A DNA stretch of 64,000 nt from Enterobacter hormaechei subsp. xiangfangensis (GTDB lineage: Bacteria; Pseudomonadota; Gammaproteobacteria; Enterobacterales; Enterobacteriaceae): the NCBI RefSeq assembly GCF_001729785.1, contig NZ_CP017183.1:1488001-1552000 (forward strand), given 5' to 3'. A program made the position numbers and the translations under genes. The notes beneath the pieces are model-generated. The model was not told where the DNA came from and made no database searches. It saw only the letters and a list, made by a program, of their open reading frames with translations. Shown piece by piece: positions 5,254-48,597 of the stretch; the stretch's first letter is position 1, and every line of letters begins with the position of its first letter.

Positions 5254-5282
5254 AGTTTCGGTCAATAACGTGAAATAGCACT

Positions 5283-5315
5283 ATCATAAGGAGGGCAACT
5301 TAAGGAAACCTTAAA
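5283..5315 (-). promoter_or_regulatory. PmrA (BasR) box and -10 for the PAP2-ybjG operon
   Basis: On the minus strand the sequence TTTAAG-GTTTC-CTTAAG (5299-5315) matches the PmrA consensus YTTAAK-N5-YTTAAK at every defined base. Ten bases further downstream is TATGAT (5283-5288), a good -10. It is about 46 bases upstream of the first gene. ybjG (mig-13) is PmrA-regulated in Salmonella, so control by PmrAB in response to iron, mild acid or polymyxin is a reasonable inference. Confidence 0.72.
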
Positions 5316-5420
5316 CAACAACGATAAGTGCGTTATTTCTGTTTTTTCACGTTAATTTGCTATCTCAGACAGCGGCAATTCATTACACTCATCGCGATTT
5401 TTTCATATTAAAGAGATTGC

Positions 5421-6653
5421 ATGATAAACCGTTCTTCTTCCGGTAATCGTCTGGGTCGTCAGGCGTTACTTTTTCCTCTGTGTCTGGTGCTTTACGAATT
5501 CTCTACCTACATCGGCAACGACATGATCCAGCCAGGCATGCTGGCTGTGGTTGAGCAGTACAACGCAGGTATTGAGTGGGTACCTACATCGATGACCGCC
5601 TATCTCGCGGGCGGCATGTTTTTACAGTGGCTTTTAGGGCCGCTGTCGGATCGTATTGGTCGCCGCCCGGTGATGCTGACGGGCGTGGTATGGTTTATCG
5701 TCACCTGTCTCGCCACGCTGCTGGCGCAGAACATTGAGCAGTTCACGTTGCTGCGTTTCCTTCAGGGCGTGAGCCTGTGCTTTATTGGTGCCGTGGGCTA
5801 CGCCGCTATTCAGGAGTCGTTTGAGGAGGCGGTATGTATCAAAATTACCGCGCTGATGGCGAACGTGGCGCTGATTGCACCGCTTCTGGGGCCGCTGGTG
5901 GGAGCCGCATGGGTCCACGTCGCGCCGTGGGAAGGGATGTTCGTGCTCTTTGCCGCGCTTGCGGCCATCTCTTTCTTTGGTCTGCACCGTGCGATGCCGG
6001 AGACCGCCACCCGCCTGGGCGAAAAGCTCTCGCTTAAAGAGCTGGGGCGTGATTATAAGGCGGTGCTGAAAAACGGCCGTTTTGTCGCGGGCGCGCTGGC
6101 GACGGGCTTTGTCAGCCTGCCGCTGCTGGCGTGGATTGCCCAGTCGCCGGTCATTATCATCAGCGGCGAACAGCTTAGCAGCTATGAGTATGGCCTGTTA
6201 CAGGTGCCGATTTTTGGCGCGCTGATTATCGGTAACCTGGTGCTGGCGCGTCTGACGTCACGCCGTACCGTGCGTTCGCTGATTATTATGGGCGGTTGGC
6301 CCATAGCGGCAGGGCTGATTATCGCGGCGGTGGCGACCGTAGCCTCGTCTCATGCGTACCTGTGGATGACGGCGGGGCTGAGCATTTACGCGTTTGGTAT
6401 CGGCGTGGCGAATGCCGGTCTGGTACGCCTGACGCTGTTCGCCAGTGAAATGAGTAAAGGCACGGTCTCTGCCGCGATGGGGATGCTGCAAATGCTGATT
6501 TTCACCGTCGGAATTGAGGTGAGCAAGCATGCTTATGCTTTCGGCGGTAACGGGCTGTTCAGCCTGTTCAACCTCGCCAACGGCGTGCTGTGGATTGCCC
6601 TGATGGTGGTATTCCTGAAAGACAAACGCGTCGGAAACGCCCTGCAACCGTAA
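5421..6653 (+). CDS. mdfA: Multidrug efflux MFS transporter MdfA
   Basis: Proton-coupled multidrug antiporter (Cmr/CmlA) of 410 residues with 12 predicted membrane helices. It exports chloramphenicol, quaternary cations and other drugs and also works as a cation/proton antiporter at alkaline pH in E. coli. The membrane-embedded acidic residues known to matter, Glu26 and Asp34, are both present in [16 protein letters not shown], and the family motif A is seen as [12 protein letters not shown]. The ATG at 5421 gives the exact family length. It is divergent from the PAP2-ybjG operon. Confidence 0.96.
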
Positions 6654-7177
6654 TCCTTATCCCCTCTCCCCCCTGGGCGAGCTCGGGACAGTTCCCTCTC
6701 CCTGTGGGCTGAGGGATCCCCAGTAATTTGAAAGCAAAAGCGATAACGTTGCCTCAGAATAACTGAGGGCTTTCAGCGATGCCTCGGTCCGGCTGTAAAT
6801 CGCTGAGGCGTTTCCTGTAGGCCGGGGCGAGGCGCAGGGATGCGCCGAGAGGGCGGGCTGTACAGGGATGTTACTTCCGCCCGTCCCCGATAAGCCGGAA
6901 GGAATAAGCCGAAGGGACCGCGAAGCGGCGATTTACCGCCGGGAGCCCGGGTCGCCAGGGTGGCGGCGACTGAGCCACCCTGGCACGTTCACCGGTCATG
7001 TCGTGACAGAGTAGCAAGGAACATAAAGTGAACGGAATGACCACCAGAGCCGTATGTTCCCCCTCACCCCAGCCCTCTCCCTCAAGGGAGAGGGGGCCGT
7101 CTGTGCAGGCATTATTTTGTGGGGAACCCTCAGCCCTGTGGGAGAGGGTTAGGATGAGGGCACCAGAGCGCACGGAA
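6654..7177. other. 524-bp intergenic region rich in palindromes
   Basis: No convincing gene lies between mdfA and the 3' end of ybjI. The region holds several inverted repeats: CCTCAG/CTGAGG (6752-6768), TCAGCGAT/ATCGCTGA (6773-6806) and a perfect CCAGGGTGGC/GCCACCCTGG (6955-6964 and 6974-6983). An alternative stem GTCGCC/GGCGAC shares the last one. GGGAGAGGG-type repeats occur at 6661-6715 and 7061-7161. Open frames here have no family resemblance and overlap the repeats. It looks like a composite repeat element or a structured RNA rather than coding DNA. Confidence 0.6.
7061..7161. repeat. Inverted pair of GGGAGAGGG-type repeats
   Basis: A copy of the CCCTCACCCC-AG-CCCTCTCCC element with its hairpin partner GGGAGAGGG (7061-7094) faces a degenerate inverted copy (7134-7161, GGGAGAGGGTTAGGATGAGGG). 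The arrangement resembles a small palindromic unit. Related copies are at 48640 and 58106. Confidence 0.7.
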
Positions 7178-7990
7178 TCAATTAAACGGCGCCTCCCCGT
7201 CCAGCACCCTATCAATTACGTCCAGCACCCCTTCGTCATTATTGTTCGGCGCTTCATAGCGGGCCACCGCCTTAATGTGCGGTCTGGCATTGGCCATCGC
7301 GAAGCCAAACCCAGCCTGGCGCAACATCTCCACGTCGTTACCGCTGTCGCCAAAGGCCACCACTTCACTGTCCTCAATGCCCCAGCGCGCTTGCAGGATC
7401 CGCAGGCCGTTAGCTTTGTGTACGCCGGGGATAATCAGGTCGATACTACCGTGTCCCGTGGTCACCGGCACCATGATGTCGCCAAGCTTCTCATGCAGCA
7501 GCGCCTGAATGCGCGGAATTTCGTCGTCAGAGACGTTTAGCCCGAATTTGAAGAAAATATCGTTGAGGTTGTCAAAGCTGCTGACGCTTTCAAGGCGGTG
7601 ATAGTATTTCGCAGCAATCTCTTTGAAGAGGTCGTTATACGTTTTCAGCGTGTAGGCGCTGTTTTTTCCGCAGGCAATTATCTCAATGCCGGGCACGTCG
7701 TTTAACAGGGTGGCGACGGTCAGAAAGTGCTCTTTCGACAGTTCGCCGTTAAACACGTCTTCGCCCGCATCCACCACCCAGCCGCCGTTTTCGGCGACGA
7801 AGGCGATTTCATGGGCGATCTCCGGGAAAAATGAGATCAGCTGGTAGTACTGGTTTCCGCTGGCGACCACAAAACGGATGCCTTGCGCTTTCATGCGCGC
7901 GTACTGCGCCAGAAAACGCGCGCGGTTATAGGTTTTCGCATCGCTCAGGAAGGAGCCATCCATGTCGACTGCAATCAGTTTAACGCTCAT
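7178..7990 (-). CDS. ybjI: HAD-superfamily sugar phosphatase YbjI
   Basis: Cytosolic Cof-type HAD hydrolase of 270 residues; the E. coli enzyme dephosphorylates FMN and some sugar phosphates. Motif I is AVDMDGSFL (nucleophile Asp and acid/base Asp), motif II is VVASGN, and motif IV is [14 protein letters not shown], with a C2-type cap domain between. The ATG at 7988-7990 ([12 protein letters not shown]) is chosen over an open extension of 22 codons because it matches the family N-terminus. It overlaps the end of ybjJ by 11 bases, so the two are translated from one mRNA. Confidence 0.93.
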
Positions 7991-9194
7991 ATCCCTTCTC
8001 CATTGACGTTGTTTCTGCTTCCGGTTTTGCCACCGCTCGCGCCACCAGGGCGGCAATAATGACTAACCCTAATACCACCAGCATCGCGCTGCGTAACCCG
8101 TAGTGCTCACCGAGGAATCCAAGCAGCGGCGGCCCCACCAGGAAAGCGAGGTAGCCCGTGGTCGCTACGACGCTCACGCGCGTCGGCGCGTCGGGGCCGG
8201 TATCGCTGGCAGCGGAAATGGTCAGCGGGAAGCCAAGGGAGGCGCCCAGTCCCCACAGGATCACCGACACACCCGCAATCCAGTCCACATCCACAAAGAT
8301 AATCATCGCGATGCCCAGCCCGCCCAGCAGGGCGCTGGCACGGACGACCGCCACGCGGCTGTAACGGTCGATAAACCAGCCCCCGGTAAAGCGTCCGACG
8401 GTCATGCCGAGCGTAAACCCGGCGTAAATCAGCGAGCCGGAGGTGGGGCTAAATCCGTGCCCGTCCACCATCAGCAACGGTAGCCAGTCGTTGGCGGAGC
8501 CTTCAGCAAACGCCATCGCCAGCACCACCACGCCAATCAGCATTAGCTGGAAATCACGATAAAAGGGCAACCCTTTTGCCGCAGACTTCTGTTCGTCCGT
8601 GGCGTGTTGTCCTGTGCCTGCGGGAATAGCCCTGATGCCGGTGAGGATCGGGATAATACAGACCAGCGCCGCCAGCAAAATGTGCACATTGGCCGCAATG
8701 CCCAGCGCCGTCAGCGCCATCCCCACGCCCGCGCCCGCCAGCGTGCCGAGGCTGTAAAAACCATGCATCATCGGCAGCACCGTTTTGTTCATCGCCTGTT
8801 CGACGGCGGCCCCCTCGACGTTAATGGCCACTTCCGCCGCACCAAAGCTGCCGCCAAATACCATCAGCCCAAGGGCAAACATCAGCGGCGAGGCGAACCA
8901 CAGCGCCACGCTCAGACCGAGCATTCCCACCACGGCGCAGCACATGGTGGTGCGGATCACCGCGCGCGTGCCAAAGCGCTTCACCAGCCAGGCCGAGCAG
9001 AGGATGCCGCTCATCGAGCCAATCGACAGGCCAAACAGCACGATCCCCATCTCCGCCGTCGAGACGGACAGCGTATCGCGGATTGCCGGGGTGCGCGTTG
9101 CCCAGGAAGCCATCAGCAGCCCGGGGATGAAGAAGAACATAAACAGCGCCCACATGCGCAGATGCAGGGCTTTGCGAGGAGAAGTTAGCGTCAT
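7980..9194 (-). CDS. ybjJ: MFS transporter YbjJ
   Basis: Major facilitator superfamily protein of 404 residues with about 12 membrane helices; substrate unknown. It starts [20 protein letters not shown] at ATG 9192-9194. Although the frame continues 49 codons upstream, that extension would run across the palindromic operator and rcdA start, so it is rejected. MFS motifs include [11 protein letters not shown] in the first loop and [11 protein letters not shown] between helices. It is divergent from rcdA and cotranscribed with ybjI. Divergence from a TetR-type regulator suggests RcdA controls it. Confidence 0.92.
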
Positions 9195-12392: not shown

Positions 12393-12736
12393 TACTATTG
12401 CACGCGATATGTGAACGCATACATGGGACCTAAATAAATTCCGGTTTCAGAAGAGCGATTCCGAAATTGGAGTGGTGAGCGAGCTTTATGTAGACTTCTG
12501 CCGCTATCCCCGGATGAAGCCTTCATTCCTTTTCCTGTCATCAGGTGGATTAATTCGTTCCAGCTTATGCCAGCTGCCTGTATCGAAGTTCAAACCCGAT
12601 CATATCTACGCTCAATCGTTGTTCTTTTAAGATATTGACCAGGCAAAATTTAACCGCGCAAGAAGATCAGCTATACCGCCATGGAAATAAGGTAGTGTTA
12701 TAAGTAATTGATAGGGAAGGGTATGAATTTCAGGAA
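12393..12736. other. Intergenic region without recognisable gene
   Basis: About 344 bases between the small membrane-protein frame and the rybB terminator. No reading frame with a ribosome site, no RNA gene and no strong repeat was seen. Base composition is AT-richer than the surrounding core genes, in line with the foreign character of the ars segment next to it. Confidence 0.5.
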
Positions 12737-12818
12737 ACAAAAAACCCATCAACCTTGAACCAAAAATGGCGGGGTTGATGGGCTCCACAAATTGGGGACA
12801 TCAAAGAAAAGCAGTGGC
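12737..12818 (-). ncRNA. rybB: Small regulatory RNA RybB
   Basis: Hfq-dependent sRNA of about 80 nt, made under sigma-E and repressing many outer-membrane porin mRNAs. Read on the minus strand it begins GCCACTGCTTTTCTTTGATG, the conserved 5' seed that pairs with targets. It ends in a terminator with arms CCCATCAACC / GGTTGATGGG (12745-12754 and 12773-12782) followed by six T. It lies next to ybjL as in E. coli. Differences from the remembered E. coli sequence are in the terminator loop and the middle stem, not in the seed. Confidence 0.95.
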
Positions 12819-33218: not shown

Positions 33219-33851
33219 CTACTCCCGCCGTTCTCCTTTCTCACTCAAAGGAGAACGGCTATTTCCACTGTTTTTTACACTCGCTTGTGAATTATCCTGC
33301 GTTTCGTCAACCGGCGGCGCGGGAATTTTTCCTTGAGAATAATCCTGCTCCTGCTCTTTTAATGCCTGCTTAAATAATTCCGTTAATGATGACTCTTCAC
33401 TGCTCGTGCTGGCGGGGGCGATATCGTGCTCATGCGCCTCGGTTCCGGGTAAGGTATCCCGCGAGGTATCGTGCGGCACCGCGCCCTCGGGCGCCTGCTG
33501 CCAGTCGGCATCATCACTGCTGATCGGCAGATCCTGCATCGGTGGAACATCAACATGCACTGGCGCAACTTTAGGCTGCGGATGCGGGAACGGTTTACTC
33601 ACGTACACGTAATGCATTTCCGAAAGCTGCGTTTCCGGTTTGGCAACGCTGGCGTTGACCGGTTCAGGTGCCGGGTGGCGCAGGTTCCAGTAGACGTGCA
33701 TATACAGGCCGACAACCAGCATGGCGCAAAGCCCGACCAGCCATAACGCTGTTTTGCCGAATACGTTTTTCAGGCTGGGGAGGCGGTACGAAAACCAGAC
33801 CGCTTCCCCGGTTGTATAGCTGCGCTGAGCCGCAAGGCAGATGGTCGACAT
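33219..33851 (-). CDS. gspB: Type II secretion accessory protein GspB-like
   Basis: Bitopic inner-membrane protein of 210 residues with a short cytosolic N-terminus, a membrane segment at about 35-52 (TALWLVGLCAMLVVGLYM), and a long Pro/Glu/Ser-rich periplasmic region ending GERRE. PulB/OutB/ExeB-type proteins work with GspA in placing the secretin through peptidoglycan. The start ATG overlaps the gspA stop (TAATG). The C-terminal codons lie in the terminator-like stem at 33228. Identification rests on architecture and the gspA neighbour more than sequence motifs. Confidence 0.72.
   Translation of the reverse strand: MSTICLAAQRSYTTGEAVWFSYRLPSLKNVFGKTALWLVGLCAMLVVGLYMHVYWNLRHPAPEPVNASVAKPETQLSEMHYVYVSKPFPHPQPKVAPVHVDVPPMQDLPISSDDADWQQAPEGAVPHDTSRDTLPGTEAHEHDIAPASTSSEESSLTELFKQALKEQEQDYSQGKIPAPPVDETQDNSQASVKNSGNSRSPLSEKGERRE
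33228..33258. terminator. 12-bp stem between regulator and gspB ends
   Basis: Perfect CCGTTCTCCTTT / AAAGGAGAACGG (33228-33239 and 33247-33258) with a 7-base loop, inside the last codons of gspB. It can end transcription from both convergent genes; a six-T run occurs about 13 bases later on the plus side. Confidence 0.6.
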
Positions 33852-35413
33852 TAGGCTTTCTTCTCCTGCATTTTTGCGTCCGGGGTGGTGCGGGTTGCCT
33901 GAATCAGTACGCCCGGCGTGCTGTTGTTCACGCGCATCAGCTGCATCAGCGTTTCTTCACCGGGGATGCCATCCACGTGCAGATGCATTTTTTGCTGGAA
34001 CTCGCGGGTGCGTTTCATCATTTCTGCGGTCCAGATCCGGGCATGCGTTTCGGGCTGGCTCAACGCGATGCTTAACTGCTGATCGAGCCAGACCATGTCT
34101 TTGCTGTCGCTGGCCGTGCCGATCGCGTCTTTTCCTTCCGGTGTCAGGCGGTGCAACTGGGTGAAGTTGCCGGTCGCATGCCGGTTAAACCAGCTGCGGC
34201 TTACCTGCCAGGTCCGGTTATTCATTAACAAGTCAATTGATGTATCTCCGACCCTGGCGACCACTGCATAGTTAAGGTGACCGCTGGTTTTCAGCTCACT
34301 GACCCACGGATACCCTTCCTGCGCCAGCGTCTGCGGGGACGCGTTCCCCTGTTTACACATCAGGTTCACTTTAGCGGCGTTCTGGCACAGCGCATCGTCG
34401 GCCGAGGCGTCATACCCCCACATGAGATAAAGCTGATGCATCGCATCCGGCTGATTAACTATTTCGTTGTCGATAACCGGCACTACGGCTGCCTCAGGTT
34501 TTGGCGTCTGCTGTTTCCAGCTGACGGGCACCGGCAGCTGGATCGGCAGGCGCGCGCCGATCGACGAGGTAAAATACCAGCCGCAGGCGGCAAACAGCAC
34601 GGACGCAAACAGCCCCACGGTTGCCAGGCGCTTACCGTGTTTTTTGGCGGGCAGGATCTCTCCCGCCGCCAGACGTAAATGGCGTGGGCTGACCTGCGCC
34701 GCGCGTTCCGTCCAGGCGGCGAGCATTGACAGGTGTGCCAGAGCGTTCAGTTTGCTGATGTTGCCTTTGGTCAGCGTGTGCATTTTGCGCACGCGGGCAG
34801 GCGGCAACGGCGAATGTTCACAGTCGTGTTCTTCGCACTGCGCCTGCACATAGCTCAGGTATTCGCAGCAGGTGAGGGGGCGCAGGACATGATGTGTGTG
34901 CGTATATTCGCGCAGTTCAGGTTGCTTTAGCAGGCGTTCCTGCTCCGCAGCACCCGTCAGCACCACGGCGAGCCGGAAGTTCAGCTCCTGGGCGCGCGTG
35001 AGCAGCGTTCCCAGGACTTCACGGCAGCTCTCCTTCATGGCTTCGGAATGGGCGATCGTCAGCACTCTGGATTTTGCTTTCCCCTCCTGCCACTGGCGCA
35101 GGACGGCATCCACCGCCTGCATGCGATCTTTAATCGCTTTCGTTCCCGGGTAGAGTTTGTACAGCAGGCTACTGGCACTCAGTTTGGGAAACGCGTTGAT
35201 GGCAATAACGGTATTGCTGCTGGCTTTCAGCGCGTCGATGAAGTGGCTCAGAAGCGGAGCGTCGTCGCAAAAAAGCCCGATAATACCCGCCAGCTGGGTT
35301 TTCTCTTTCAGCAGGTTGAACACGTCCTGATGATAAGGCACCAGAAAATCACCGGATAAACGGGTGATTGTCCTGAATGGCGGATTTTTAAAATTAAAGT
35401 GGCTCTGATACAT
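33851..35413 (-). CDS. gspA: Type II secretion protein GspA with degenerate ATPase motifs
   Basis: ExeA/GspA-type protein of 520 residues. The N-terminal AAA-like domain starts MYQSHFNFKNPPFRTI as in ExeA. Where Walker A should be it reads AGIIGLFCDDAPLLSHF, with no GxxxxGK(S/T), and the Walker B position reads VLTIAHSEAM without the DE pair. A membrane segment follows at about 265-285 (LATVGLFASVLFAACGWY). The periplasmic part ends in a peptidoglycan-binding domain (TREFQQKMHLHVDGIPGEETLM, about 470-500). It should bind peptidoglycan but looks unable to hydrolyse ATP. It is divergent from gspC. Confidence 0.85.
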   Translation of the reverse strand: MYQSHFNFKNPPFRTITRLSGDFLVPYHQDVFNLLKEKTQLAGIIGLFCDDAPLLSHFIDALKASSNTVIAINAFPKLSASSLLYKLYPGTKAIKDRMQAVDAVLRQWQEGKAKSRVLTIAHSEAMKESCREVLGTLLTRAQELNFRLAVVLTGAAEQERLLKQPELREYTHTHHVLRPLTCCEYLSYVQAQCEEHDCEHSPLPPARVRKMHTLTKGNISKLNALAHLSMLAAWTERAAQVSPRHLRLAAGEILPAKKHGKRLATVGLFASVLFAACGWYFTSSIGARLPIQLPVPVSWKQQTPKPEAAVVPVIDNEIVNQPDAMHQLYLMWGYDASADDALCQNAAKVNLMCKQGNASPQTLAQEGYPWVSELKTSGHLNYAVVARVGDTSIDLLMNNRTWQVSRSWFNRHATGNFTQLHRLTPEGKDAIGTASDSKDMVWLDQQLSIALSQPETHARIWTAEMMKRTREFQQKMHLHVDGIPGEETLMQLMRVNNSTPGVLIQATRTTPDAKMQEKKA

Positions 35414-35671: not shown

Positions 35672-36446
35672 ATGAGGTTCTCATTTCTGTCACGGTGGAT
35701 AACGCCTTGTATTATGTTTGCGCTGCTCATTTTTAGCGGCCAGCAAGGGTATCTCACCTTAAAAGATTATAAAAAAGTTACGAATAAGTTGGCTAAAGCT
35801 GATCTACAGCCGCTGAAAAAAAACGCGCGAAGATAAACCCTTCACGCTTTTTACGGCTGCCGTCCGTCAGGAGAACTTAGCGGATGCGGCAAAAGCCCCG
35901 CTGGCAGCGGAGATAGAGGGCATTGTGCGCAGTGATGACGCCTGGCTCTCCTTTGCTGTTATCAAAACCCCAGGCGGTCAGCGAAGCTACCGTGAGGGTG
36001 AACCTCTCGCCGGATTTAACGACGCATTTATTCAGGAAATAAACAAAGATAATGTGGTGGTTAATTATGAAGGTGCTACGCAGGTACTGGCGTTAAATAA
36101 ACCGGACTATTTTAAGGGGGGCGTGGATAGCGGCCCGGTTACAAAATCGACGAAAGATGCTGGCGCAGAAAGTTTGCATCTTGATGATTATCTGGTGTTA
36201 AAACCCATCATTGAAAAAGGCCGACTGGAAGGCTACAGGATAAATCCAAGGAATGCCTCCGCCTTTTACAGTCAGTCAGGTCTGGAAAAAGGCGATGTGG
36301 CGGTTCAGGTTAACTCTGTCGATATGACCGATGAAGCAAAAGCGAAAAGCATTATTGCCAACTGGTCGAAAATGAAAGAAGCGGATGTCGTCGTGCGGCG
36401 TCACGCTCACCTTGTAAATATTCGGGTTAATGTTCTAAACAATTAA
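35672..36446 (+). pseudogene. gspC: gspC interrupted by a frameshift at an A8 run
   Basis: Inner-membrane clamp that links the secretion platform to the secretin. The first frame (ATG 35672) encodes a membrane anchor WITPCIMFALLIFSGQQGY and stops at TAA 35834. The rest is open in another frame from 35817 to 36446. It contains the HR domain (IEGIVRSDDAWLSFAVIKTP) and a PDZ-like domain (GYRINPRNASAFYSQSGLEK). Removing one A from the run at 35816-35823 would join them into about 257 residues, close to the 271 of E. coli GspC. Only a +1 or -2 shift restores the frame. It may be a true mutation, a slippage site or a sequence error. Confidence 0.85.
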
Positions 36447-36459
36447 CAAGTGTGCAGAC

Positions 36460-38382
36460 ATGAAAAAATTTCCCTGGGCGTGCGTGGCGCTGACCGCATT
36501 GTCGTTATATTCCAGTTCGCTGCTTGCAGCTAACTTTAGCGCGAGTTTTAAAAATACTGATATTCGCGAGTTTATCGATACGGTAGGCCGCAATCTCAAC
36601 AAAACCATTCTGGTCGACCCGTCCGTCCAGGGCACCGTCTCGGTCCGAACCTACAACGTGCTGACGGAAGATGAGTACTACCAATTCTTTCTGAGCGTGC
36701 TGGATCTCTACGGCCTGTCGGTGATCCCGTTGGACAACGGCATGGTCAAAGTGGTGCGCTCAAGCGTGGCGCGTACCGCCGGTGCGCCGCTGGCAGACAG
36801 CAAGAACCCGGGCAAAGGTGATGAGATCATCACCCGCGTGGTGCGCATGGAAAACGTACCCGTTCGCGAGCTGGCCCCGCTGCTGCGTCAGCTCAACGAT
36901 GCCACTGGCATCGGGAACGTGGTGCACTTTGAGCCGTCCAACGTCCTGCTGTTAACCGGTAAAGCCTCGGTGGTGAACCGCCTGGTGGATCTGGTGCAGC
37001 GCGTCGATAAAGACGGTATTCAGCGCCGCGAAATCCTCCCGCTGCGCTTTGCCTCTGCCAAAGAACTTTCGGATATGTTGAACAACCTCAACAACGAAGA
37101 GCAGAAAGGGCAGAACGCGCCGCAGCTGGCGACCAAGGTGGTGGCGGATGACGAAACCAACAGCCTGGTGATCAGCGGTTCGGAAGATGCGCGCGCGCGT
37201 ACCCGTTCCCTTATCCATCAGCTGGATCGCGAGCAGAATAACGAGGGGAACACCCGCGTCTTCTACCTCAAATATGCCAGCGCCACCAAAGTGGTGCCGG
37301 TGCTGACCGGGATTGGCGAGCAGCTGAAAGACAAGCCGGGCGCGGCCAAAGCGAAAACCGCGAGCGCCTCAACCGATCTGAATATCACCGCCGACGAGTC
37401 AACCAACTCCCTGGTGATCACTGCGCAGCCTAATGTGATGAACTCCCTGGAGAAGGTGATCGACAAGCTGGATATTCGCCGTCCGCAGGTGCTGGTGGAA
37501 GCGATCATTGCCGAAGTGCAGGACGGCAACGGCCTGGATCTTGGGGTGCAGTGGACCAGCAAGCACGGCGGCGTGCAGTTTGGCGCTACCGGCCTGCCAA
37601 TCAGCCAGATTAAAAATGGCACCATGAAAGGGGCGAGCTTCACGGGCCTTGCGACCGGCTTCTTTAACGGTGATTTCGGTGCGCTGATGACCGCGCTCTC
37701 CACCAACGGCAAAAACGACATCCTCTCCACGCCAAGCGTGGTCACGCTGGATAACAAAGAAGCGTCATTCAACGTCGGTCAGGATGTGCCGGTGCTTTCC
37801 GGTTCGCAAACCACCAGCGGCGACAACGTGTTTAACTCCGTTGAGCGTAAAACCGTCGGTACCAAGCTGAAGATTGTGCCGCAAATCAACGATGGCGACA
37901 TGATCCACCTGAAGATTGAGCAGGAAGTGTCCAGCGTTGACAACAGCGCGACGGAAGATTCGAGCCTCGGCCCAACCTTCAACACGCGCACGATCAATAA
38001 CGAAGTGATGGTTCACAGTGGCCAGACGGTGGTGCTCGGCGGCCTGATGGAAAATGTGACCAAACAGTCCGTCTCCAAAGTGCCGCTGCTCGGCGATATC
38101 CCGCTGGTCGGGCAGCTGTTCCGCTACACCTCGCAGGATACCTCTAAACGCAACCTGATGGTGTTTATTCATACCACCGTCCTGCGTGACGACGACAACT
38201 ACAGCGCAGCCTCGAAAGAGAAATATGACCAGATCCGGGTGCGCCAGATGCAGCGCGTGGAAGAGAAAAAGCTCGGTATTGTTGAGCCGAGCGACAATGC
38301 CGTCCTGCCCGCGTTTCCTTCAGCAAGCCCTCACGTCGCACCGGTGAAAACCTCCGCGGCACGCAATCCGTTTAAAGAGTAA
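36460..38382 (+). CDS. gspD: Type II secretion secretin GspD
   Basis: Outer-membrane channel subunit of 640 residues (E. coli 650). Signal peptide ends near SSLLA-A (about residue 23). N0 is ANFSASFKNTDIREFIDTVG; three KH-like N domains follow (about 120-340) and then the secretin core, with VPLLGDIPLVGQLFRY and the inner-gate region FNVGQDVPVLSG. It is intact. The C-terminus is Pro/Ala-rich like other pilotin-dependent secretins, but no gspS pilotin gene is seen here. It follows gspC by 13 bases. Confidence 0.95.
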   Translation: MKKFPWACVALTALSLYSSSLLAANFSASFKNTDIREFIDTVGRNLNKTILVDPSVQGTVSVRTYNVLTEDEYYQFFLSVLDLYGLSVIPLDNGMVKVVRSSVARTAGAPLADSKNPGKGDEIITRVVRMENVPVRELAPLLRQLNDATGIGNVVHFEPSNVLLLTGKASVVNRLVDLVQRVDKDGIQRREILPLRFASAKELSDMLNNLNNEEQKGQNAPQLATKVVADDETNSLVISGSEDARARTRSLIHQLDREQNNEGNTRVFYLKYASATKVVPVLTGIGEQLKDKPGAAKAKTASASTDLNITADESTNSLVITAQPNVMNSLEKVIDKLDIRRPQVLVEAIIAEVQDGNGLDLGVQWTSKHGGVQFGATGLPISQIKNGTMKGASFTGLATGFFNGDFGALMTALSTNGKNDILSTPSVVTLDNKEASFNVGQDVPVLSGSQTTSGDNVFNSVERKTVGTKLKIVPQINDGDMIHLKIEQEVSSVDNSATEDSSLGPTFNTRTINNEVMVHSGQTVVLGGLMENVTKQSVSKVPLLGDIPLVGQLFRYTSQDTSKRNLMVFIHTTVLRDDDNYSAASKEKYDQIRVRQMQRVEEKKLGIVEPSDNAVLPAFPSASPHVAPVKTSAARNPFKE

Positions 38383-38396
38383 GGCGGAGGGATAAC

Positions 38397-39056
38397 GTGG
38401 ACGAACTGAGTAAATCCCTGTGTAGCAGCAACTACGCAAAAGATAACGGCGTTCTGCTTTACAACAATGACGTCTATATCCGTGAGGACACCCCGGCGTT
38501 AGCACTGCTGGAGGTGCGCCGGGTGCTTGGACGCGCGTTCGTCCCGATCACCCTGGCGCCGGAAGCGTTTGATGAGATGCTGGCCAAAATCTGGCAGCAG
38601 AGCAGCGGCGTGTCGCAGCAGCTGGTGGACGACATGGACGCGGATATCGATCTGATGGCGTTAACCGAGGAGATCCCGGATAACGGCAACAAAAAGCAAA
38701 AGGGGATGACGCTGCTGGAGGTGATGGTCGCTTTGGTGATTTTCTCCACCGCCGCGCTGGCGCTGATGAACTCGGTCTCCCTGAACGTGCGTTTTACCCA
38801 TGGCCTGGCCGATACCTTGCAGGCCACTTGGGTGGCGGAAAACCAGCTGGCGGAAGCACAGCTCACGAAAACCGACTTCCCGGATGCTGAACAGCAGGGG
38901 ACGGAAATCATGGGCGGGCGCAGCTGGAACTGGCGTAAGCAGCGGGTGAAAACGGCCGACAACGTCTGGGCGAATACAATACGCGTGTATGCGGAAGGCG
39001 ATGAGAGCCAGCCGGTTATTTCCCTGCATATCATTCCGCCGGGAGAGAGCAAGTGA
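38397..39056 (+). CDS. Chimeric GspE N-terminal / GspI pseudopilin gene
   Basis: One 219-residue frame. Residues 1 to about 98 (LLEVRRVLGRAFVPITLAPE ... LTEEIPD) match the N-terminal, GspL-binding domain of the GspE ATPase. From about 99 the sequence is GspI: KKQKG-MTLLEVMVALVIFS, the prepilin cleavage site (Gly103-Met104, with Glu at +5), then a minor-pseudopilin body. GspE Walker motifs and zinc domain, and all of gspF, gspG and gspH, are missing. The join is near 38681-38692. The GTG at 38397 follows GGCGGAGG; the stop overlaps gspJ. Topology would be coherent: cytosolic domain, membrane helix, periplasmic head. Confidence 0.9.
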   Translation: MDELSKSLCSSNYAKDNGVLLYNNDVYIREDTPALALLEVRRVLGRAFVPITLAPEAFDEMLAKIWQQSSGVSQQLVDDMDADIDLMALTEEIPDNGNKKQKGMTLLEVMVALVIFSTAALALMNSVSLNVRFTHGLADTLQATWVAENQLAEAQLTKTDFPDAEQQGTEIMGGRSWNWRKQRVKTADNVWANTIRVYAEGDESQPVISLHIIPPGESK

Positions 39057-39712
39057 AGAAAATGCGACGCCAGCGCGGATTTACCCTGCTGGAGATCATG
39101 ATTGCGCTGACTATCTTCGCGGTGATCAGCACCCTGGCCTGGCAAATTCTGGACGGCGCGATGCGTACCAGCTCGGCGACGGATGCCAGCGCCGCAAAGC
39201 TCAACCAGCTTCAGCGCGCCTGGAGTCTGATGGAGCGTGATTTTTTCCAGCTTCAGGCGCGCGCCCCGCGTAATGAGCCGGAGCTGTTTCGTCAGGCGGG
39301 CGATGCCCTTGAACTGACCACCCTGAATGGCGTGAGCGGAACGGTCCAGCTGGAGCGCGTGCGCTGGCGGCTGGAAGAGGGGCGTTTGTATCGCGACGTC
39401 TGGCCGGTCATTGACGGCCCGGCGGATGTTAAGCCTGACGAAGTGCCGATTGTCAGCGGCGTTAAATCATTGCAGTGGCGGTTTTATCGTCAGGGCTGGC
39501 TGAAAAGTTGGAGCGACGCCGCCCATCTGCCGGACGGCGTGGAGGTTACGTTGACGATGGAAAACGGGGATACCTGGCGCTGGGTATTCACCACGCCGGG
39601 TGATATGCCGGAGGTGGCCGCTGCCGCGGCGCCAGAGAAAGCCGCCGACGCACCTGGGACGCCCCCGGATGCAGCCCCTGCGCCTGCCCCTTCGCCGGAG
39701 ACCAGACCATGA
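39053..39712 (+). CDS. gspJ: Minor pseudopilin GspJ
   Basis: Type II secretion minor pseudopilin of 219 residues that forms the tip complex with GspI and GspK. The prepilin motif is RQRG-FTLLEIMIALTIFAV, with cleavage after Gly and Glu at +5. The C-terminus has an unusual Ala/Pro-rich tail (AAAAPEKAADAPGTPPDAA). The start is GTG at 39053 overlapping the previous stop (GTGA). It ends overlapping gspK. Confidence 0.93.
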   Translation: MKKMRRQRGFTLLEIMIALTIFAVISTLAWQILDGAMRTSSATDASAAKLNQLQRAWSLMERDFFQLQARAPRNEPELFRQAGDALELTTLNGVSGTVQLERVRWRLEEGRLYRDVWPVIDGPADVKPDEVPIVSGVKSLQWRFYRQGWLKSWSDAAHLPDGVEVTLTMENGDTWRWVFTTPGDMPEVAAAAAPEKAADAPGTPPDAAPAPAPSPETRP

Positions 39713-40719
39713 AGCGGATCCGTCAACAACAGGGCGTCGCCCTGCTGGTGGTGCTGATTTTGCTGGTGATGATGTCGGCGCTGGCCGCCAAAATCAGCCA
39801 GCAGTTCTGCCGTAATTTGCAGAAAACGCATTATCAGGTAAGCCAGCAGCAGCTGCGCTGGGCGATGCAGGCCCAGGAAAAAGTGGTTAAGGACCGGTTA
39901 CAGACCGACGCCAGCGGCGAGAGCAAGCCGCTGGCGCTGGACGGCGACTGGCATCAGCCGCTGGAGACGCAGGGTGAAGATTACACGGTCGTGAGCCAGG
40001 TGGAAGATGCGCAGGACTGCTTTAACGTCAATAACCTGTTGACCGCCGACATCGCACCCCAGGGGCAAAGCGCTCCCGCGGTGGCGGAAACACCGCGTAA
40101 AGCGCGGATTGTAGAACAACTTCTGACGGAAAGTGGGCTCAGTCGGGGCACGGCGGAGGCGGTCTATTTCCAGCTGGTGGATTATCTCGATGGTGACAGC
40201 ACCACGGCGAAGGAGGGGGCCGAAAGCGATGCGTGGGCTGGCGTCGTGCCCGCGCGGCAACCGGCAAATCAGATGATGCGCAGCATCGCGGAAATCAAAC
40301 TGCTGCCGGCGTTCCCTGTTACGGCATATCCAAAGGTGAGCAAGCTGTTATGCGCGCTGCCGGACGCCGCCAGCAAGGTGGACGTGAACACCCTGCAACC
40401 GGAACAGGCCGCCGTGCTGGCGGCCATGTTCCCGGGAAAACTCACGCGGGATGACGCCGTTCGCCTGCTGGATTCGCGTCCGGAATCGGGCTGGGAAAAT
40501 ATGGAAGCGTTCAGCAAAGCGCTGGAGCAGGCCTTCCCGCAGTTAAAAGACGATCTCCCGCAGGTGGTGGATCAATTTTCTATAAACAGCCGGTACTTCC
40601 GCGTGAATTACACCGGCAATACCGATGAATTAACGCTTCGCGTGGTCAGCCAGCTTCAGGTGAATAACGAAGCCGGTGAGATCGTGACGTGGCAGCGTCG
40701 TTACCGAATGATTGAATAA
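39709..40719 (+). CDS. gspK: Minor pseudopilin GspK
   Basis: Large minor pseudopilin of 336 residues that caps the pseudopilus. The N-terminal motif is RQQQG-VALLVVLILLVMMSAL and lacks Glu at +5, as is usual for GspK. The large periplasmic head includes a helical insert and the calcium-site region DAQDCFNVNNLLT. The ATG overlaps the gspJ stop (ATGA). Confidence 0.94.
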   Translation: MKRIRQQQGVALLVVLILLVMMSALAAKISQQFCRNLQKTHYQVSQQQLRWAMQAQEKVVKDRLQTDASGESKPLALDGDWHQPLETQGEDYTVVSQVEDAQDCFNVNNLLTADIAPQGQSAPAVAETPRKARIVEQLLTESGLSRGTAEAVYFQLVDYLDGDSTTAKEGAESDAWAGVVPARQPANQMMRSIAEIKLLPAFPVTAYPKVSKLLCALPDAASKVDVNTLQPEQAAVLAAMFPGKLTRDDAVRLLDSRPESGWENMEAFSKALEQAFPQLKDDLPQVVDQFSINSRYFRVNYTGNTDELTLRVVSQLQVNNEAGEIVTWQRRYRMIE

Positions 40720-40734
40720 GAAAAGTAGAACGTT

Positions 40735-41868
40735 ATGAAACAGGTACTTTTTGTTCGTCCCGACAGCCGCGAGGGCGGGAAAATAATGTGGTGTGAGTCC
40801 GGCAGCGAGCGCGTCGAGGTGGTCGACAGCCTGGAGATGCTGGCCGAACACCCCCTGGCTACGCGCGTTTGTCTCCTGTTACCCGCCAGCGACATGATTT
40901 TCCGCCATTTTAGGCTACCGAAAAAGGTGGCTTCTCAGGGAATGGCCTTCTCGTGGATGGCAGAAGAGACGCTGATTGGCGACGTGGACAACCTCCACTG
41001 GACGGTACTCCACAAAAAAGGCGCCGACGTCGACGCCGTGGCCATTGACGCCGACCGCCTGCGCGCAACATTAATCCGCTGTCAGGAGGCCGGATTAAAC
41101 GTGATTCAGGCCCTGCCTGATGCCTGGCTCCTGCCCGTGACGGCAGGGGGCAGCACGCTGGTCGCGCAGGATGATGGCTACTGGCTGCGTTTATCGCCCC
41201 ATGTGGCGGGTGAAATGGAGGCAACCCTGCTGCCGCTGTTAATGCAGAAAGCCGGGGGCGGGGAAGTGTGGTGTTACGGCGATGCGCCTGCGAAGGTGCA
41301 CATTGACGTGCAGCATGCCTGGCAGCATCCGCTGGCGCTGATCCAGCCGCAGTGGCAAACCTGTCGCGTTAACCTGCTTCACGGTGAATTCAGCCTTAAG
41401 GCCGGTCATGGGCGGGCAGCGAAAAGGATGAAAGCCGCGATGGTGGCGGCGGGCGTGCTGTCTGTTGGTCTGCTGCTGGGGCCACGCATTGCGATGGCCT
41501 GGATGCTGGTGCAGCAGGAAAATCGGGTGCAGCAGGAGATCGTCCAGGTTTATCAGCACCATTTCCCCAGCATGCGGCAGCAGACCAATATCAAATATCA
41601 CTTTGGCCAAAGCCTGAAAAAACAGAGCAAGGGGTTCTTTCTTCAGCTTGAGGAGCTGGAGAAAGCCCGGCAGTCAGTCCCTGCGATGGAGATCGATCTG
41701 CTGGAATACGATGCGCAGCAAAACACCCTGACGCTGAGCGTCAGCGCGCAAAACCAGCCCGCGTTGCAGGCGTTTGTTAACCAGACCAGTGAGAATTTTG
41801 ATTTTACCTTACAGCCTGTTTCAACAACCGAACCGTATACCGCCATGATCGCAGGGAAACATAAATGA
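40735..41868 (+). CDS. gspL: Type II secretion platform protein GspL
   Basis: Bitopic inner-membrane protein of 377 residues. The actin-like cytosolic domain (about 1-235) normally binds the N-terminal domain of GspE. The membrane helix is at about 240-262 (AAMVAAGVLSVGLLLGPRIAMA) and a ferredoxin-like periplasmic domain binds GspM. The frame is intact. Because its partner GspE survives only as the N-terminal domain fused to GspI, GspL could still bind that chimera. Confidence 0.9.
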   Translation: MKQVLFVRPDSREGGKIMWCESGSERVEVVDSLEMLAEHPLATRVCLLLPASDMIFRHFRLPKKVASQGMAFSWMAEETLIGDVDNLHWTVLHKKGADVDAVAIDADRLRATLIRCQEAGLNVIQALPDAWLLPVTAGGSTLVAQDDGYWLRLSPHVAGEMEATLLPLLMQKAGGGEVWCYGDAPAKVHIDVQHAWQHPLALIQPQWQTCRVNLLHGEFSLKAGHGRAAKRMKAAMVAAGVLSVGLLLGPRIAMAWMLVQQENRVQQEIVQVYQHHFPSMRQQTNIKYHFGQSLKKQSKGFFLQLEELEKARQSVPAMEIDLLEYDAQQNTLTLSVSAQNQPALQAFVNQTSENFDFTLQPVSTTEPYTAMIAGKHK

Positions 41869-42350
41869 AAGAGCGAATCGCACAGCTGAAAGCGCGCTAT
41901 CAGAATTACAGCGCCCGGGAAAAAATCATTTTAAAAATATGTGCCGTTGCCATTGTGGGGGCAGCGGTGTATTACACAGGAGTGATCCCCTTGGATAATA
42001 TGATTAAAAATAGTAAATCGACACTTAAAAGACAAAAAGAGACGCTTAACTGGATGCGCAGTGAAATTGATAAAAATCATCTTCAGATCCAGTTAGTCAA
42101 AACGGATAATCCGCGTACGGTGGTCGAGAATAGCGCCCATGAAATTAACCTTTCGCTGACGGATGTGCGCCAGGAGGGGCAAACTTTATCGTTCGTGGTG
42201 AATCGGGTTAATGTGTATGAATTAAAAAGCTGGCTGCGTGAAATTAATCAGACCACCGGTGTGAGATTGCAAAAAATAAACCTCACGCCGGTTGACCACC
42301 TCAGCGATGTGAAAGCGCAGGTGCAACTCACCTGGGCAAAAAACGCATGA
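41865..42350 (+). CDS. gspM: Type II secretion platform protein GspM
   Basis: Small bitopic inner-membrane protein of 161 residues with a cytosolic start, a helix at about 24-42 (IILKICAVAIVGAAVYYTGV) and a ferredoxin-like periplasmic domain. It partners GspL and GspC. It overlaps gspL and gspO by 4 bases each. No gspN gene follows, as in the E. coli K-12 set. Confidence 0.9.
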   Translation: MKERIAQLKARYQNYSAREKIILKICAVAIVGAAVYYTGVIPLDNMIKNSKSTLKRQKETLNWMRSEIDKNHLQIQLVKTDNPRTVVENSAHEINLSLTDVRQEGQTLSFVVNRVNVYELKSWLREINQTTGVRLQKINLTPVDHLSDVKAQVQLTWAKNA

Positions 42351-43144
42351 ATACCTTCGCGCTGATGCGGGATGCCTTTCCGGTAGGGTTCCCGATAATG
42401 AGTGCGATCCTGGGCGGCATTGTGGGCAGTTTTCTTGGCGTTGTCGCCGAACGCGTACCGGGGATGGTGATGGATGAGGAGGGGAGCGGTAATCTGCTCA
42501 TTCCGGCCTCGCACTGTTCGGTGTGCCAGCACGCCCTCGCCGCGTGGGAAAACATCCCGCTGCTCAGCTGGCTTTTATTACGGGGGCGCTGCCACCAGTG
42601 CGGCAGCGCGATCCCGCTGCGACTCTTTCTGGTCGAACTGATCTCCGCCTTGTTTTTTGGCATCACGGCCTGGTGCATGCCAGACGTTCAGGCGCTGTTC
42701 TCTTTGTGGTTACTGGCGGCTTTTTTACTGCCGCTGGCCATGATCGACTGGCAGCACCAGCTGCTTCCGGACTGCCTGACCCAGCCGCTGCTGTGGGCAG
42801 GTCTCTTGCTTCATGTGTTTGACCACACGTTGCCGCTACGCGATGCGCTGTTCGGCGCGGTGGCGGGCTATCTGTCGCTCTGGCTGCTCTACTGGGCTTT
42901 TCGTCTGATCACGGGACGAGAAGGTCTGGGTTACGGGGATTTTAAGCTACTGGCGGCGCTGGGCGCCTGGTGCGGCTGGCAGGCGTTGCCCTCTATTGAA
43001 CTGGCGGCAGCGTTAAGCGGTATTGTCGGTTATTTCGCCGTAAATAATTTAAATAAAAATAACCTCACTATTTCTTTTGGTCCTTATCTCGCCTTTGCTG
43101 GAATAGGGGTTTTTATTAGTCAGCAAATTGCTTTCACATTTTAA
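42347..43144 (+). CDS. gspO: Prepilin peptidase/methyltransferase GspO
   Basis: Inner-membrane aspartic protease of 265 residues that cleaves prepilin leaders after Gly and methylates the new N-terminus. The cytosolic zinc loop has two CxxC pairs (CSVC and CHQC). Catalytic aspartates are in MIDWQHQLLPD and GLGYGDFKLL. About eight hydrophobic segments. Intact and last in the gsp operon; it would be needed to process GspI, J and K and perhaps pilins encoded elsewhere. Confidence 0.95.
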   Translation: MNTFALMRDAFPVGFPIMSAILGGIVGSFLGVVAERVPGMVMDEEGSGNLLIPASHCSVCQHALAAWENIPLLSWLLLRGRCHQCGSAIPLRLFLVELISALFFGITAWCMPDVQALFSLWLLAAFLLPLAMIDWQHQLLPDCLTQPLLWAGLLLHVFDHTLPLRDALFGAVAGYLSLWLLYWAFRLITGREGLGYGDFKLLAALGAWCGWQALPSIELAAALSGIVGYFAVNNLNKNNLTISFGPYLAFAGIGVFISQQIAFTF

Positions 43145-43379: not shown

Positions 43380-46100
<2,721 letters not shown>

Positions 46101-46111
46101 TCTAACCCATT

Positions 46112-46141
46112 AATCACTCCCCCTTTAGAGGGGGAGTGATT
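46112..46141 (+). terminator. Hairpin after the GH18 chitinase
   Basis: AATCACTCCCCC / GGGGGAGTGATT (46112-46123 and 46130-46141) with a 6-base loop, 12 bases after the stop. No long T-run follows, so termination may be partial. Confidence 0.7.
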
Positions 46142-46201
46142 CAAAATTCATTTTACAGGATGTTGGTAAGGAGAAATAACCGAAACTGTCAGCAGGTAAA
46201 A

Positions 46202-46642
46202 ATGAAAAAGTTAATTTTGTTGTTATTGATAATAAGCCAAAGCGCACTGGCAAATTGTTGGGATAAAGCGGCGCATTATTATCATGTCGATCCTTATTTA
46301 CTGTACGCGATAGCGAATGTGGAATCCGGAATGAATCCGTATGCGGTTGGGCAAAACCGCGATGGCACGCGGGATGTCGGGCTGATGCAAATCAACAGTT
46401 CGCATTTTACCGCGCTTGAAAGCAGAGGCATCGACGAATATCGATTAATCACGGAGCCGTGTACTTCGATCATGGTCGGGGCTTCTATCCTTTCCGGGAT
46501 GATCAGGGTGTATGGCTACAACTGGGAAGCCGTTGGCGCGTATAACGCCGGACTGAAAAAAGAAAATTATCCGCAGAGGATGAAATATGCCCATAAGGTC
46601 TGGGCCAAATATCAGCAACTGAAATTAGCAGCACGTTATTAA
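46202..46642 (+). CDS. Small secreted lytic transglycosylase (IagB/IpgF-like)
   Basis: Periplasmic SLT-family enzyme of 146 residues that cuts the glycan strand of peptidoglycan. The signal peptide is MKKLILLLLIISQSALANCW. The catalytic Glu is in YAIANVESGMNPYAV, then GLMQINSSHF and GAYNAG, all standard family blocks. It resembles the dedicated enzymes IagB/IpgF that open the wall for secretion machines. The ATG at 46202 follows GCAGGTAAAA; the frame is open 22 codons further but the signal peptide fixes the start. It lies between two chitinase genes, so a role in wall passage of the secretion machine is plausible. Confidence 0.88.
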   Translation: MKKLILLLLIISQSALANCWDKAAHYYHVDPYLLYAIANVESGMNPYAVGQNRDGTRDVGLMQINSSHFTALESRGIDEYRLITEPCTSIMVGASILSGMIRVYGYNWEAVGAYNAGLKKENYPQRMKYAHKVWAKYQQLKLAARY

Positions 46643-46776
46643 CGTTTTTTATTTTTGAAGAATTCCTGAAGGTGTTCTTCGAAAAGTGAAAACAGCTGAA
46701 TGTGGTTTATGTATTAACGGAGTAATACCTAAGCCGGGATATTAACATTTAATTTGAAACGAACAGGAAAACTGAA

Positions 46777-48597
46777 ATGAACAAAAGGACGTTACTGAGT
46801 GTACTCATTGCGGGAGCCTGCGTGGCGCCATTCATGGCCCAGGCTGCGAATCTGAAGGAGACCAGCAGTGAGCCGTACACCATCAAAGCCAGCGATCTGG
46901 CGAAGAAAGAGAAGGAACTGACGGACTTCCCGCTGATGGCTTCGGTTAAAGAGACCATCCAGACGCTGGATAACGCGCAGGTCGAACTGATTGAGCCAGG
47001 CCGGGCGGCGAACCCGGACAACGTTAAACGCGTTGAAGGGATTGTGAAAGCCAGCGACTGGGAATATCTCTTCCCGCTGCGCGCCCAGGCCTATACCTAC
47101 AGCAACTTCCTGAAAGCCGTGGGTAAATTCCCGGCGCTGTGTAAAACCTATAATGACGGTCGTGACAGCGACGCCATCTGTCGCAAAGAGCTGGCCACCA
47201 TGTTTGCCCACTTTGCCCAGGAAACTGGCGGCCACGAAAGCTGGCGTCCGGAAGCCGAATGGCGTCAGGCGCTGGTCCACGTACGTGAAATGGGCTGGAG
47301 CGAAGGGCAGAAGGGCGGTTATAACGGCGAATGTAACCCGGACGTCTGGCAAGGACAGACCTGGCCTTGCGGTAAAGATAAAGACGGCGATTTCCTGAGC
47401 TATTTCGGACGCGGTGCGAAACAGTTGTCTTACAACTACAACTACGGTCCATTCTCTGAAGCGATGTACGGCGACGTGCGTACGCTGCTCGACAAACCTG
47501 AGCTGGTGGCGGACACCTGGCTGAACCTGGCGAGTGCGATCTTCTTCTTCGCCTATCCGCAGCCGCCAAAACCAAGCATGTTGCAGGTGATCGACGGTAC
47601 ATGGCAGCCGAACGACCACGATAAAGCCAACGGTCTGGTTCCGGGCTTTGGTGTGACCACCCAGATCATCAACGGCGGCGTTGAGTGCGGCGGCCCGACT
47701 GAAATTGCGCAGTCTCAGAACCGTATCAAATACTACAAAGAGTTTGCAAACTACCTGAAAGTGCCTGTTCCGGCGAACGAAGTGTTGGGTTGCGCCAACA
47801 TGAAGCAGTTCGACGAAGGTGGCGCAGGCGCCCTGAAGATTTACTGGGAACAGGACTGGGGATGGAGCGCGGATACCCCGGACGGCAAGACCTACTCTTG
47901 CCAGCTGGTGGGCTACCAGACTCCGTTCAGCGCCTTTAAAGAAGGTGACTACAGCAAGTGCGTGCAGAAGTTCTTTAACGTGAAAATCGTTAACGATGAT
48001 GGTTCTTCCGTTACCCCGGACGAAACCCCGGTCACGCCAACACCGACGCCATCTGGCGATGAAACGCCAGCGCCAACACCAACGCCGGATGAAACCCCGG
48101 TCGAACCTGTTGTGGTGAACCACGCGCCGGTTGCGCAGATTGCCGGTCCGATCGGTGCAGTGGAAGCAGGTGCGCAGGTTTCTCTGAGTGCGGAAGGCTC
48201 CACCGATCCTGATGGCAACAAACTGACGTATACCTGGCGTTCCCAGGATGGTCAGACTGTTACCGGTCAGGACAAAGCGGTTGTGACCTTCACAGCGCCA
48301 GAGTCTGCGACGGCGCAGCAGTATGAAGTGAGCCTGACCGTCAGCGATGGCGAGCTGAGCAGCACCACGTCTTACCTGCTGAACGTGAAAGCGAAAGCGG
48401 CAACGCCATCCGGAGAAGATACGTCTTACCCGGCATGGAGCGCGAACAGCAAGTACAACGCCGGTGATATCGTGAACAACCACGGTAAACTGTTCCAGTG
48501 CAAACCGTTCCCGTACAGCGGCTGGTGTAACAACTCTTCAACGTACTATGAACCAGGCGCAGGTCTGGCATGGGCTGAAGCCTGGACGGCTCTGTAA
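46777..48597 (+). CDS. Modular GH19 chitinase
   Basis: Secreted chitinase of 606 residues, unrelated in fold to the GH18 enzyme. Signal peptide ends at AQA-A (about 23). The GH19 catalytic region (about 85-330) shows [14 protein letters not shown] with the general-acid Glu and [16 protein letters not shown] Thr/Pro/Glu-rich linker (about 408-443), one PKD domain (about 444-540) and a C-terminal CBM5/12-type domain ([20 protein letters not shown]) follow. It shares the PKD-CBM design of the upstream chitinase. Also a likely cargo of the neighbouring system. Confidence 0.93.

What the first reader, a model, noticed from the sequence alone, without database searches (positions are those of the whole stretch)
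38397..39056. In-frame gspE::gspI chimera with loss of the secretion ATPase, GspF, GspG and GspH
Between gspD and gspJ a normal gsp operon has gspE-F-G-H-I. Here one 219-codon frame begins as the GspE N-terminal domain and changes near 38681-38692 to GspI, keeping the prepilin cleavage site (Gly103-Met104). About 3.4 kb of standard operon is missing, yet the flanking genes keep intact, overlapping frames. Two readings are possible. One is a recent clean deletion that disables secretion. The other is a working chimera that places a GspL-binding domain on the cytosolic side of a minor pseudopilin, which is topologically possible and would be freed by GspO cleavage. A 103-residue leader on a pseudopilin would be very unusual.
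Basis: partly seen in the sequence, partly recalled or inferred. Interest (0 to 1): 0.8.

Follow-up and report, generated by a model that had tools for sequence, protein, structure and literature searches.

The report
Deletion-broken secretion operon with gene fusion
A 3.3-kb deletion in an Enterobacter protein-secretion operon has removed its motor and central parts and joined the ends of two genes into one reading frame; this looks like ordinary loss of a secretion system, not a new working protein.

Summary
The chimera is real: residues 1-96 are 92% identical to a neighbour's GspE start, residues 96-219 are 94% identical to its GspI. All 48 other drawn Enterobacter genomes with this operon keep both ends apart, 18 of them by exactly 3,338 bp more than here. 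The ends share 5 bp, TAACG, at 38681-38685. Lost are most of gspE, gspF, gspG, gspH and the gspI start codon. In the one-contig genome the missing DNA matches only a 333-bp, 67%-identical piece of another ATPase gene; the best GspF match is 23% identical; no GspG was found. gspC is also frame-broken at a run of A, though sequencing error is not excluded. The junction was found in 0 of 391 other family genomes. Best reading: a recent, chance in-frame deletion that disables the type II secretion system beside chitinase ChiA, like the internal gspD-K deletion of E. coli K-12 T2SS-beta (PMC3707838, passages). A functional chimera is topologically possible but nothing supports it. Same-species strains could not be examined.

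The parts
38397..39056 (+). gspE'::'gspI in-frame fusion, 219 codons, GTG start
38397..38680 (+). GspE-derived part (N1E domain, GspL-binding by homology); with the shared bases it codes residues 1-96
   Evidence: PF22341 at residues 13-65; 92% identity to GspE of L007
38681..38685 (+). deletion junction; 5 bp TAACG present at both ends in L006, L007, L008 and L011 (4 of 27 near loci)
38686..39056 (+). GspI-derived part: native leader less Met-Ala, cleavage site after Gly103, pseudopilin domain, stop
35672..36446 (+). gspC, frame-broken: the 5' frame ends at the stop 35834-35836; the 3' part is open as 35925-36446; the break lies at or near a run of eight A, 35816-35823
   Evidence: in 26 of 27 relatives the frame is 257-345 codons from stop to stop, 258 in 19 of them; L016, a record with many split genes, has 235
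36460..38382 (+). gspD secretin, intact
39053..39712 (+). gspJ, intact, overlaps the fusion by 4 bases
39709..40719 (+). gspK, intact
40735..41868 (+). gspL, intact, cytoplasmic T2SSL domain present
41865..42350 (+). gspM, intact
42347..43144 (+). gspO prepilin peptidase, both domains present
33219..35413 (-). gspB and gspA, divergent (gspA by its Pfam domain; the gspB name is from position and recall, with no Pfam match)
43398..46100 (+). chiA-type GH18 chitinase, a likely substrate of the intact system
   Evidence: role by analogy with the E. coli chitinase-secreting T2SS-alpha (PMC3707838, passages)

Best explanation
In this Enterobacter lineage a 3,338-bp deletion between two 5-bp matches removed the gspE linker and ATPase domains, gspF, gspG, gspH and the gspI start codon. 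By chance it left the reading frame open. The T2SS-alpha type (chitinase) system is therefore non-functional: it has no motor, no inner-membrane platform and no major pseudopilin. The fusion frame is a by-product. If translated, it would insert as a prepilin with an N1E domain in the cytosol, perhaps be cut by GspO, and have no filament to join. Shown: the fusion in the assembly, the missing stretch relative to relatives, the shared bases at its ends in 4 of 27 near loci, the failure to find second copies, and the gspC frame break in the assembly. Inferred: the deletion as a single event in this lineage, that it is recent, the loss of secretion, and the fate of the product.
For: 48 of 48 other genus genomes that carry the operon (of 59 others drawn) keep the two ends apart, by 3,322-3,339 bp more than here in 47 and by 4,116 bp in one, which has an insertion. 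All 27 near loci L005-L031 do too, at 3,322-3,339 bp (these overlap with the 48). The junction motif, with up to 3 mismatches, is in 1 of 392 family genomes, the window's own. The ends share 5 bp and no direct repeat of 14 nt or more found in L007 fits the loss. Own genome: the T2SSE family has two members over the cut-off, at 777117 and 3862231, and two weak matches below it; the missing DNA matches only 333 bp of the first at 67% (40 of 80 first-look candidates were scored); the best GspF match is 23% identical, beside that ATPase; 0 T2SSG matches, the control ringing in 2 of 14 genomes, E. coli among them. gspC is frame-broken. Private changes in nine gsp genes or gene parts are 8 nonsynonymous to 25 synonymous in the window against 103 to 359 pooled for six relatives, Fisher p 0.83, compatible with a recent loss. 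Precedent: E. coli K-12 lost gspD-K of T2SS-beta by an internal deletion (PMC3707838, passages).
Against: Only one genome carries it and no reads were available, so its presence in the living strain is not shown. The frame is open, and the N1E domain, cleavage site and downstream genes are intact, which the chimera reading would also predict. The remaining genes show no relaxed selection. gspC could be a homopolymer sequencing error, or be read by slippage on the run of A. No secretion phenotype is known.
Confidence: 0.9

Rival explanations
1. Working chimera: the fusion is expressed, its N1E leader binds GspL, and GspO frees it, giving a regulated minor pseudopilin or a decoy in a reduced or re-purposed system, perhaps powered by the type IV pilus-like ATPase and platform pair at 775958-778226.
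For: The N1E domain is nearly complete by Pfam (profile positions 6-63 of 64), GspL and GspO are intact, and the native leader next to the cleavage site is kept except Met-Ala. PulE residues 1-108 bind PulL residues 1-235 one to one in K. pneumoniae (PMC6882859, passages). Leader length varies and very long leaders are mentioned for S. sanguinis (PMC10191384, passages). The genome has a distant ATPase/platform pair.
Against: It was seen in one genome among 60 drawn from the genus and its junction in one of 392 drawn from the family. No GspG was found and gspC is frame-broken. Leaders are given as 6-26 residues, about 15-30 for type IVb prepilins (PMC4471445, passages). In-frame joining has a one-in-three chance. 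The distant platform protein is only 23% identical to GspF and nothing ties the pair to this operon.
Confidence: 0.03
2. Assembly error: gspEFGH is present in the strain but was collapsed or skipped.
For: No reads were available. gspC shows a frame break at a homopolymer, typical of some long-read data (the typicality is recalled).
Against: One contig, 100% complete, 0.1 contamination. Only 5 bp are shared at the ends and no repeat of 14 nt or more in L007 fits. The missing stretch was not found elsewhere in the assembly.
Confidence: 0.05
3. Old, fixed fusion: a gene joined long ago and kept in the lineage.
For: The open frame is kept and the neighbouring genes show no relaxed selection.
Against: All 48 other drawn genus genomes with the operon have separate ends. 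The GspE part has 0 nonsynonymous and 1 synonymous private change and the GspI part 0 and 1, and both parts are as like the neighbour as the rest of the operon, so the join looks young.
Confidence: 0.02

Closest known systems
E. coli K-12 T2SS-beta remnant: internal deletion of gspD-K (PMC3707838, passages)
   Same: An internal deletion of a gsp operon that leaves flanking gsp genes and inactivates secretion
   Different: Other T2SS lineage and other breakpoints; the Enterobacter deletion runs from gspE into gspI and leaves one open fused frame
T2SS-alpha / chitinase-secreting gsp operon (E. coli, with chiA)
   Same: gspA/B divergent to gspC-D-...-J-K-L-M-O, GspO prepilin peptidase, chitinase gene next to gspO (the E. 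coli gene order is recalled)
   Different: Most of E, all of F, G, H and the start of I are missing here; gspC is frame-broken
Type IV prepilins with long leaders
   Same: Hydrophilic leader ending in Gly, then Glu at position 5 of the mature part (MTLLE)
   Different: Leader of 103 residues holding a domain homologue, against 6-26 residues, about 15-30 in type IVb (PMC4471445, passages)

Membership tests
Functional type II secretion system (T2SS) | Secretion ATPase GspE with N2E and C-terminal ATPase domains | tested here: not met
   only N1E remains here; two other T2SSE-family proteins over the cut-off lie elsewhere
Functional type II secretion system (T2SS) | GspF platform protein | tested here: not met
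   only a 23%-identical relative elsewhere, beside a T2SSE-family ATPase
Functional type II secretion system (T2SS) | Major pseudopilin GspG | tested here: not met
   0 matches of PF08334 in the genome; the control rings in 2 of 14, E. coli among them
Functional type II secretion system (T2SS) | Minor pseudopilin GspH | tested here: not met
   by DNA only: the stretch that holds gspH in L005 has no match in the genome beyond 333 bp of an ATPase gene; no family search was made
Functional type II secretion system (T2SS) | Secretin GspD | tested here: met
Functional type II secretion system (T2SS) | GspC in one frame | tested here: inconclusive
   frame-broken in the assembly; sequencing error not excluded
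GspI minor pseudopilin | T2SSI domain and class III signal motif with Gly before the cleavage site | tested here: met
GspI minor pseudopilin | Short hydrophilic leader | tested here: not met
   103 residues from the GTG start; an internal ATG at residue 87 (38655) would give 17 but has no obvious ribosome site (read by eye)
GspI minor pseudopilin | Cleavage by GspO and incorporation in the pseudopilus | not testable with these tools
   needs protein work
Deletion-inactivated gsp operon (as in K-12 T2SS-beta) | Intact spacing in near relatives, one contiguous stretch missing, no second copy of the lost genes | tested here: met
Deletion-inactivated gsp operon (as in K-12 T2SS-beta) | Loss of secretion | not testable with these tools
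   needs a secretion assay

The most novel reading that the evidence does not exclude
The fusion is expressed and acts: its N1E leader docks a minor pseudopilin onto GspL until GspO cuts it, either as a decoy that locks the remaining GspL/GspM platform or as part of a reduced machine driven by the distant type IV pilus-like ATPase and platform pair.
Probability: 0.02. Interest if true: 0.75.

Novelty: new member of a known kind. Interest (0 to 1): 0.15.

Why it matters
It is a well-resolved instance of type II secretion loss in an opportunistic genus, with exact breakpoints, and it warns annotators that the open fused frame should not be read as a GspI or GspE gene. A T2SS count that relies on the genes left here (gspD, gspI part, gspJ-O) would call this strain positive. 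If the chimera did work, it would be the first prepilin known to me with a docking domain as leader (recall, no search made for that wider claim), but this is unlikely.

Tried and rejected
Considered and rejected: (1) The missing genes moved elsewhere: the L005 stretch matches only a 333-bp, 67%-identical piece of the ATPase gene at 777 kb (40 of 80 first-look candidates were scored). (2) A shared, old fusion: of 59 other genus genomes 48 have two separate pieces, one (G004) only a 40-base weak match and ten no match; the junction was in none of 391 other family genomes. Only 4 of those 391 are of the genus, and one search finds this junction only, with up to 3 mismatches, so one search is the stronger test near home. 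(3) Deletion by longer direct repeats: a 25-nt, 72% pair in L007 with spacing 3,367 does not fit 3,338 bp (one relative, repeats of 14 nt or more). (4) Relaxed selection on the remnant genes: not seen, which neither supports nor refutes recent loss. (5) Structure prediction was not run; the joint protein alignment of separate GspE and GspI pieces was misaligned by the program and was not used. (6) Papers: the lists shown by searches (20 of 28; 15 of 20; 12 of 79; 10 of 13; 8 of 16), and one search (no paper), hold no title or abstract start that describes this fusion. I read passages of six papers from these lists and none in full.

What could not be done: a search of the large protein database for the same fusion in other strains (switched off), so same-species strains remain unexamined. 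The genome collections hold one genome per species.

Full report
Observation. The frame at 38397-39056 is open for 219 codons from GTG. Residues 1-96 match GspE of E. hormaechei hoffmannii L007 at 88 of 96 identities, and residues 96-219 match its GspI at 117 of 124. Asn96 is shared because the two genes have the same bases there. Pfam gives GSPE_N1E, N_methyl and T2SSI above their cut-offs. Of five distinct solved chains matched, two are GspE (first half) and three GspI (second half). The chimera is real at sequence level.

Intact state. In L007 the order is gspE 4859-6337, gspF 6337-7545, gspG 7549-7998, gspH 7998-8483, gspI 8476-8856 (gene names by order and homology). In 27 of 27 near loci (L005-L031; the other 30 of the 57 loci were not used in this count) both ends are present, 3,322-3,339 bp further apart than in the window. 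In a draw of 60 genus genomes (own included), 49 have the orthologous GspD at 90% identity or more, three (G007, G008, G016) have only a more distant secretin and eight have no hit at E <= 1e-100. All 48 others with the orthologous GspD have the GspE and GspI ends as two separate matches: 47 at 3,322-3,339 bp, 18 of them exactly 3,338, and one (G005) at 4,116 bp. These spacings show room for gspE-H; I read the genes themselves only in L007 and L033 and G005. G005 has 768 bp inserted in the last bases of gspF, with frames that look like an IS1 element (the element name is recalled).

Breakpoints. Aligning both sides gives TAACG at both ends in L006, L007, L008 and L011, 4 of the 27 near loci; the window reads through it once (38681-38685). 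No direct repeat of 14 nt or more in L007 fits a 3,338-bp loss. This looks like short-homology (illegitimate) deletion, which is an inference from the ends. The gspI start codon and second codon are gone; the rest of its leader remains. Joining in frame has a one-in-three chance, so the open frame by itself is no evidence of use.

Second copies. The T2SSE family has two members over the cut-off elsewhere in the one-contig genome, at 777117-778226 and 3862231-3862833, and two weak matches below it. DNA of the missing stretch from L005 matches only 333 bp of the first at 67% (40 of 80 first-look candidates scored). The best GspF-like protein is 23% identical and lies beside that ATPase. No T2SSG match exists. 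GspH was covered by the DNA search only. So I found no second GspE, GspG or GspH and no close GspF.

Second lesion. gspC in relatives is one frame of 257-345 codons from stop to stop in 26 of 27 (258 in 19); L016, whose other genes are also split, has 235. In the window its 5' part runs into a stop at 35834-35836 and the remainder continues in another frame. The change lies at or near a run of eight A at 35816-35823. It may be a true mutation, a sequencing error in a homopolymer, or partly readable by slippage; this cannot be told here. Intact copies exist in relatives.

Selection. Codons changed in one lineage only, over nine gsp genes or gene parts in seven sequences (window, L005, L006, L007, L008, L010 and L011; six of the 27 relatives), are 8 nonsynonymous and 25 synonymous in the window, and 103 and 359 pooled in the six others (Fisher p 0.83). 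There is no sign of long decay, so the loss looks recent; the test has little power, and a kept function would look the same.

Function. GspE N1E binds the cytosolic part of GspL one to one, and the central ATPase ring is modelled from the N2E and C-terminal domains that are missing here (PMC6882859, passages). Leaders of prepilins are given as 6-26 residues, about 15-30 for type IVb, and stay in the cytosol (PMC4471445, passages); a later review mentions very long leaders in S. sanguinis without a number in the passage seen (PMC10191384, passages). A cytosolic N1E is therefore topologically possible, but no filament can be expected without GspE, GspF and GspG. An internal ATG at residue 87 would give a 17-residue leader but shows no obvious ribosome site (read by eye). 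gspJ-K-L-M-O and the GH18 chitinase are intact, so chitinase export is the likely casualty, by analogy with T2SS-alpha of E. coli (PMC3707838, passages).

Literature. E. coli K-12 T2SS-beta lost gspD-K by an internal deletion (PMC3707838, passages). In the E. hormaechei complex T2SSs are reported in 240 genomes and absent in four steigerwaltii and five xiangfangensis strains (PMC12034153, passages). Another study reported T2SS components absent from its E. kobei, E. hormaechei and E. ludwigii, and complete except for gspE in its E. nimipressuralis, E. asburiae and the reference strain (PMC7235008, passages); I did not check its genomes, and the intact gspE in L007 shows that absence is not general. 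Loss in this genus is therefore known. This particular fusion appears in none of the title and abstract lists of searches, which were capped.

Verdict. A real, recent-looking, in-frame deletion product in what is most likely a disabled T2SS. It is ordinary as a kind of event, and exact and well bounded as an instance.

Noticed in passing
window 35672-36446: gspC is frame-broken at or near a run of eight A; it could be a true lesion, a sequencing error or a slippage site.
   Followed up: partly
L077 (G005) 5991-6758: Another Enterobacter gsp operon carries a 768-bp IS1-like insertion in the last bases of gspF, with both ends of the operon otherwise in place (element name recalled).
   Followed up: partly
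   Followed up: no
window 43398-48597: Two chitinase-type genes follow the operon: GH18 with PKD and CBM5/12 domains, and GH19 with a PKD domain.
   Followed up: no
L032: A record named Chryseobacterium carries an enterobacterial-type GspI (67% identical); probably a contaminated or mislabelled assembly.
   Followed up: no
L016: Several genes of this Leclercia record appear split, which looks like indel errors in the assembly.
   Followed up: no
window 12736-12815 (-): RybB small RNA, 101 bits.
   Followed up: no
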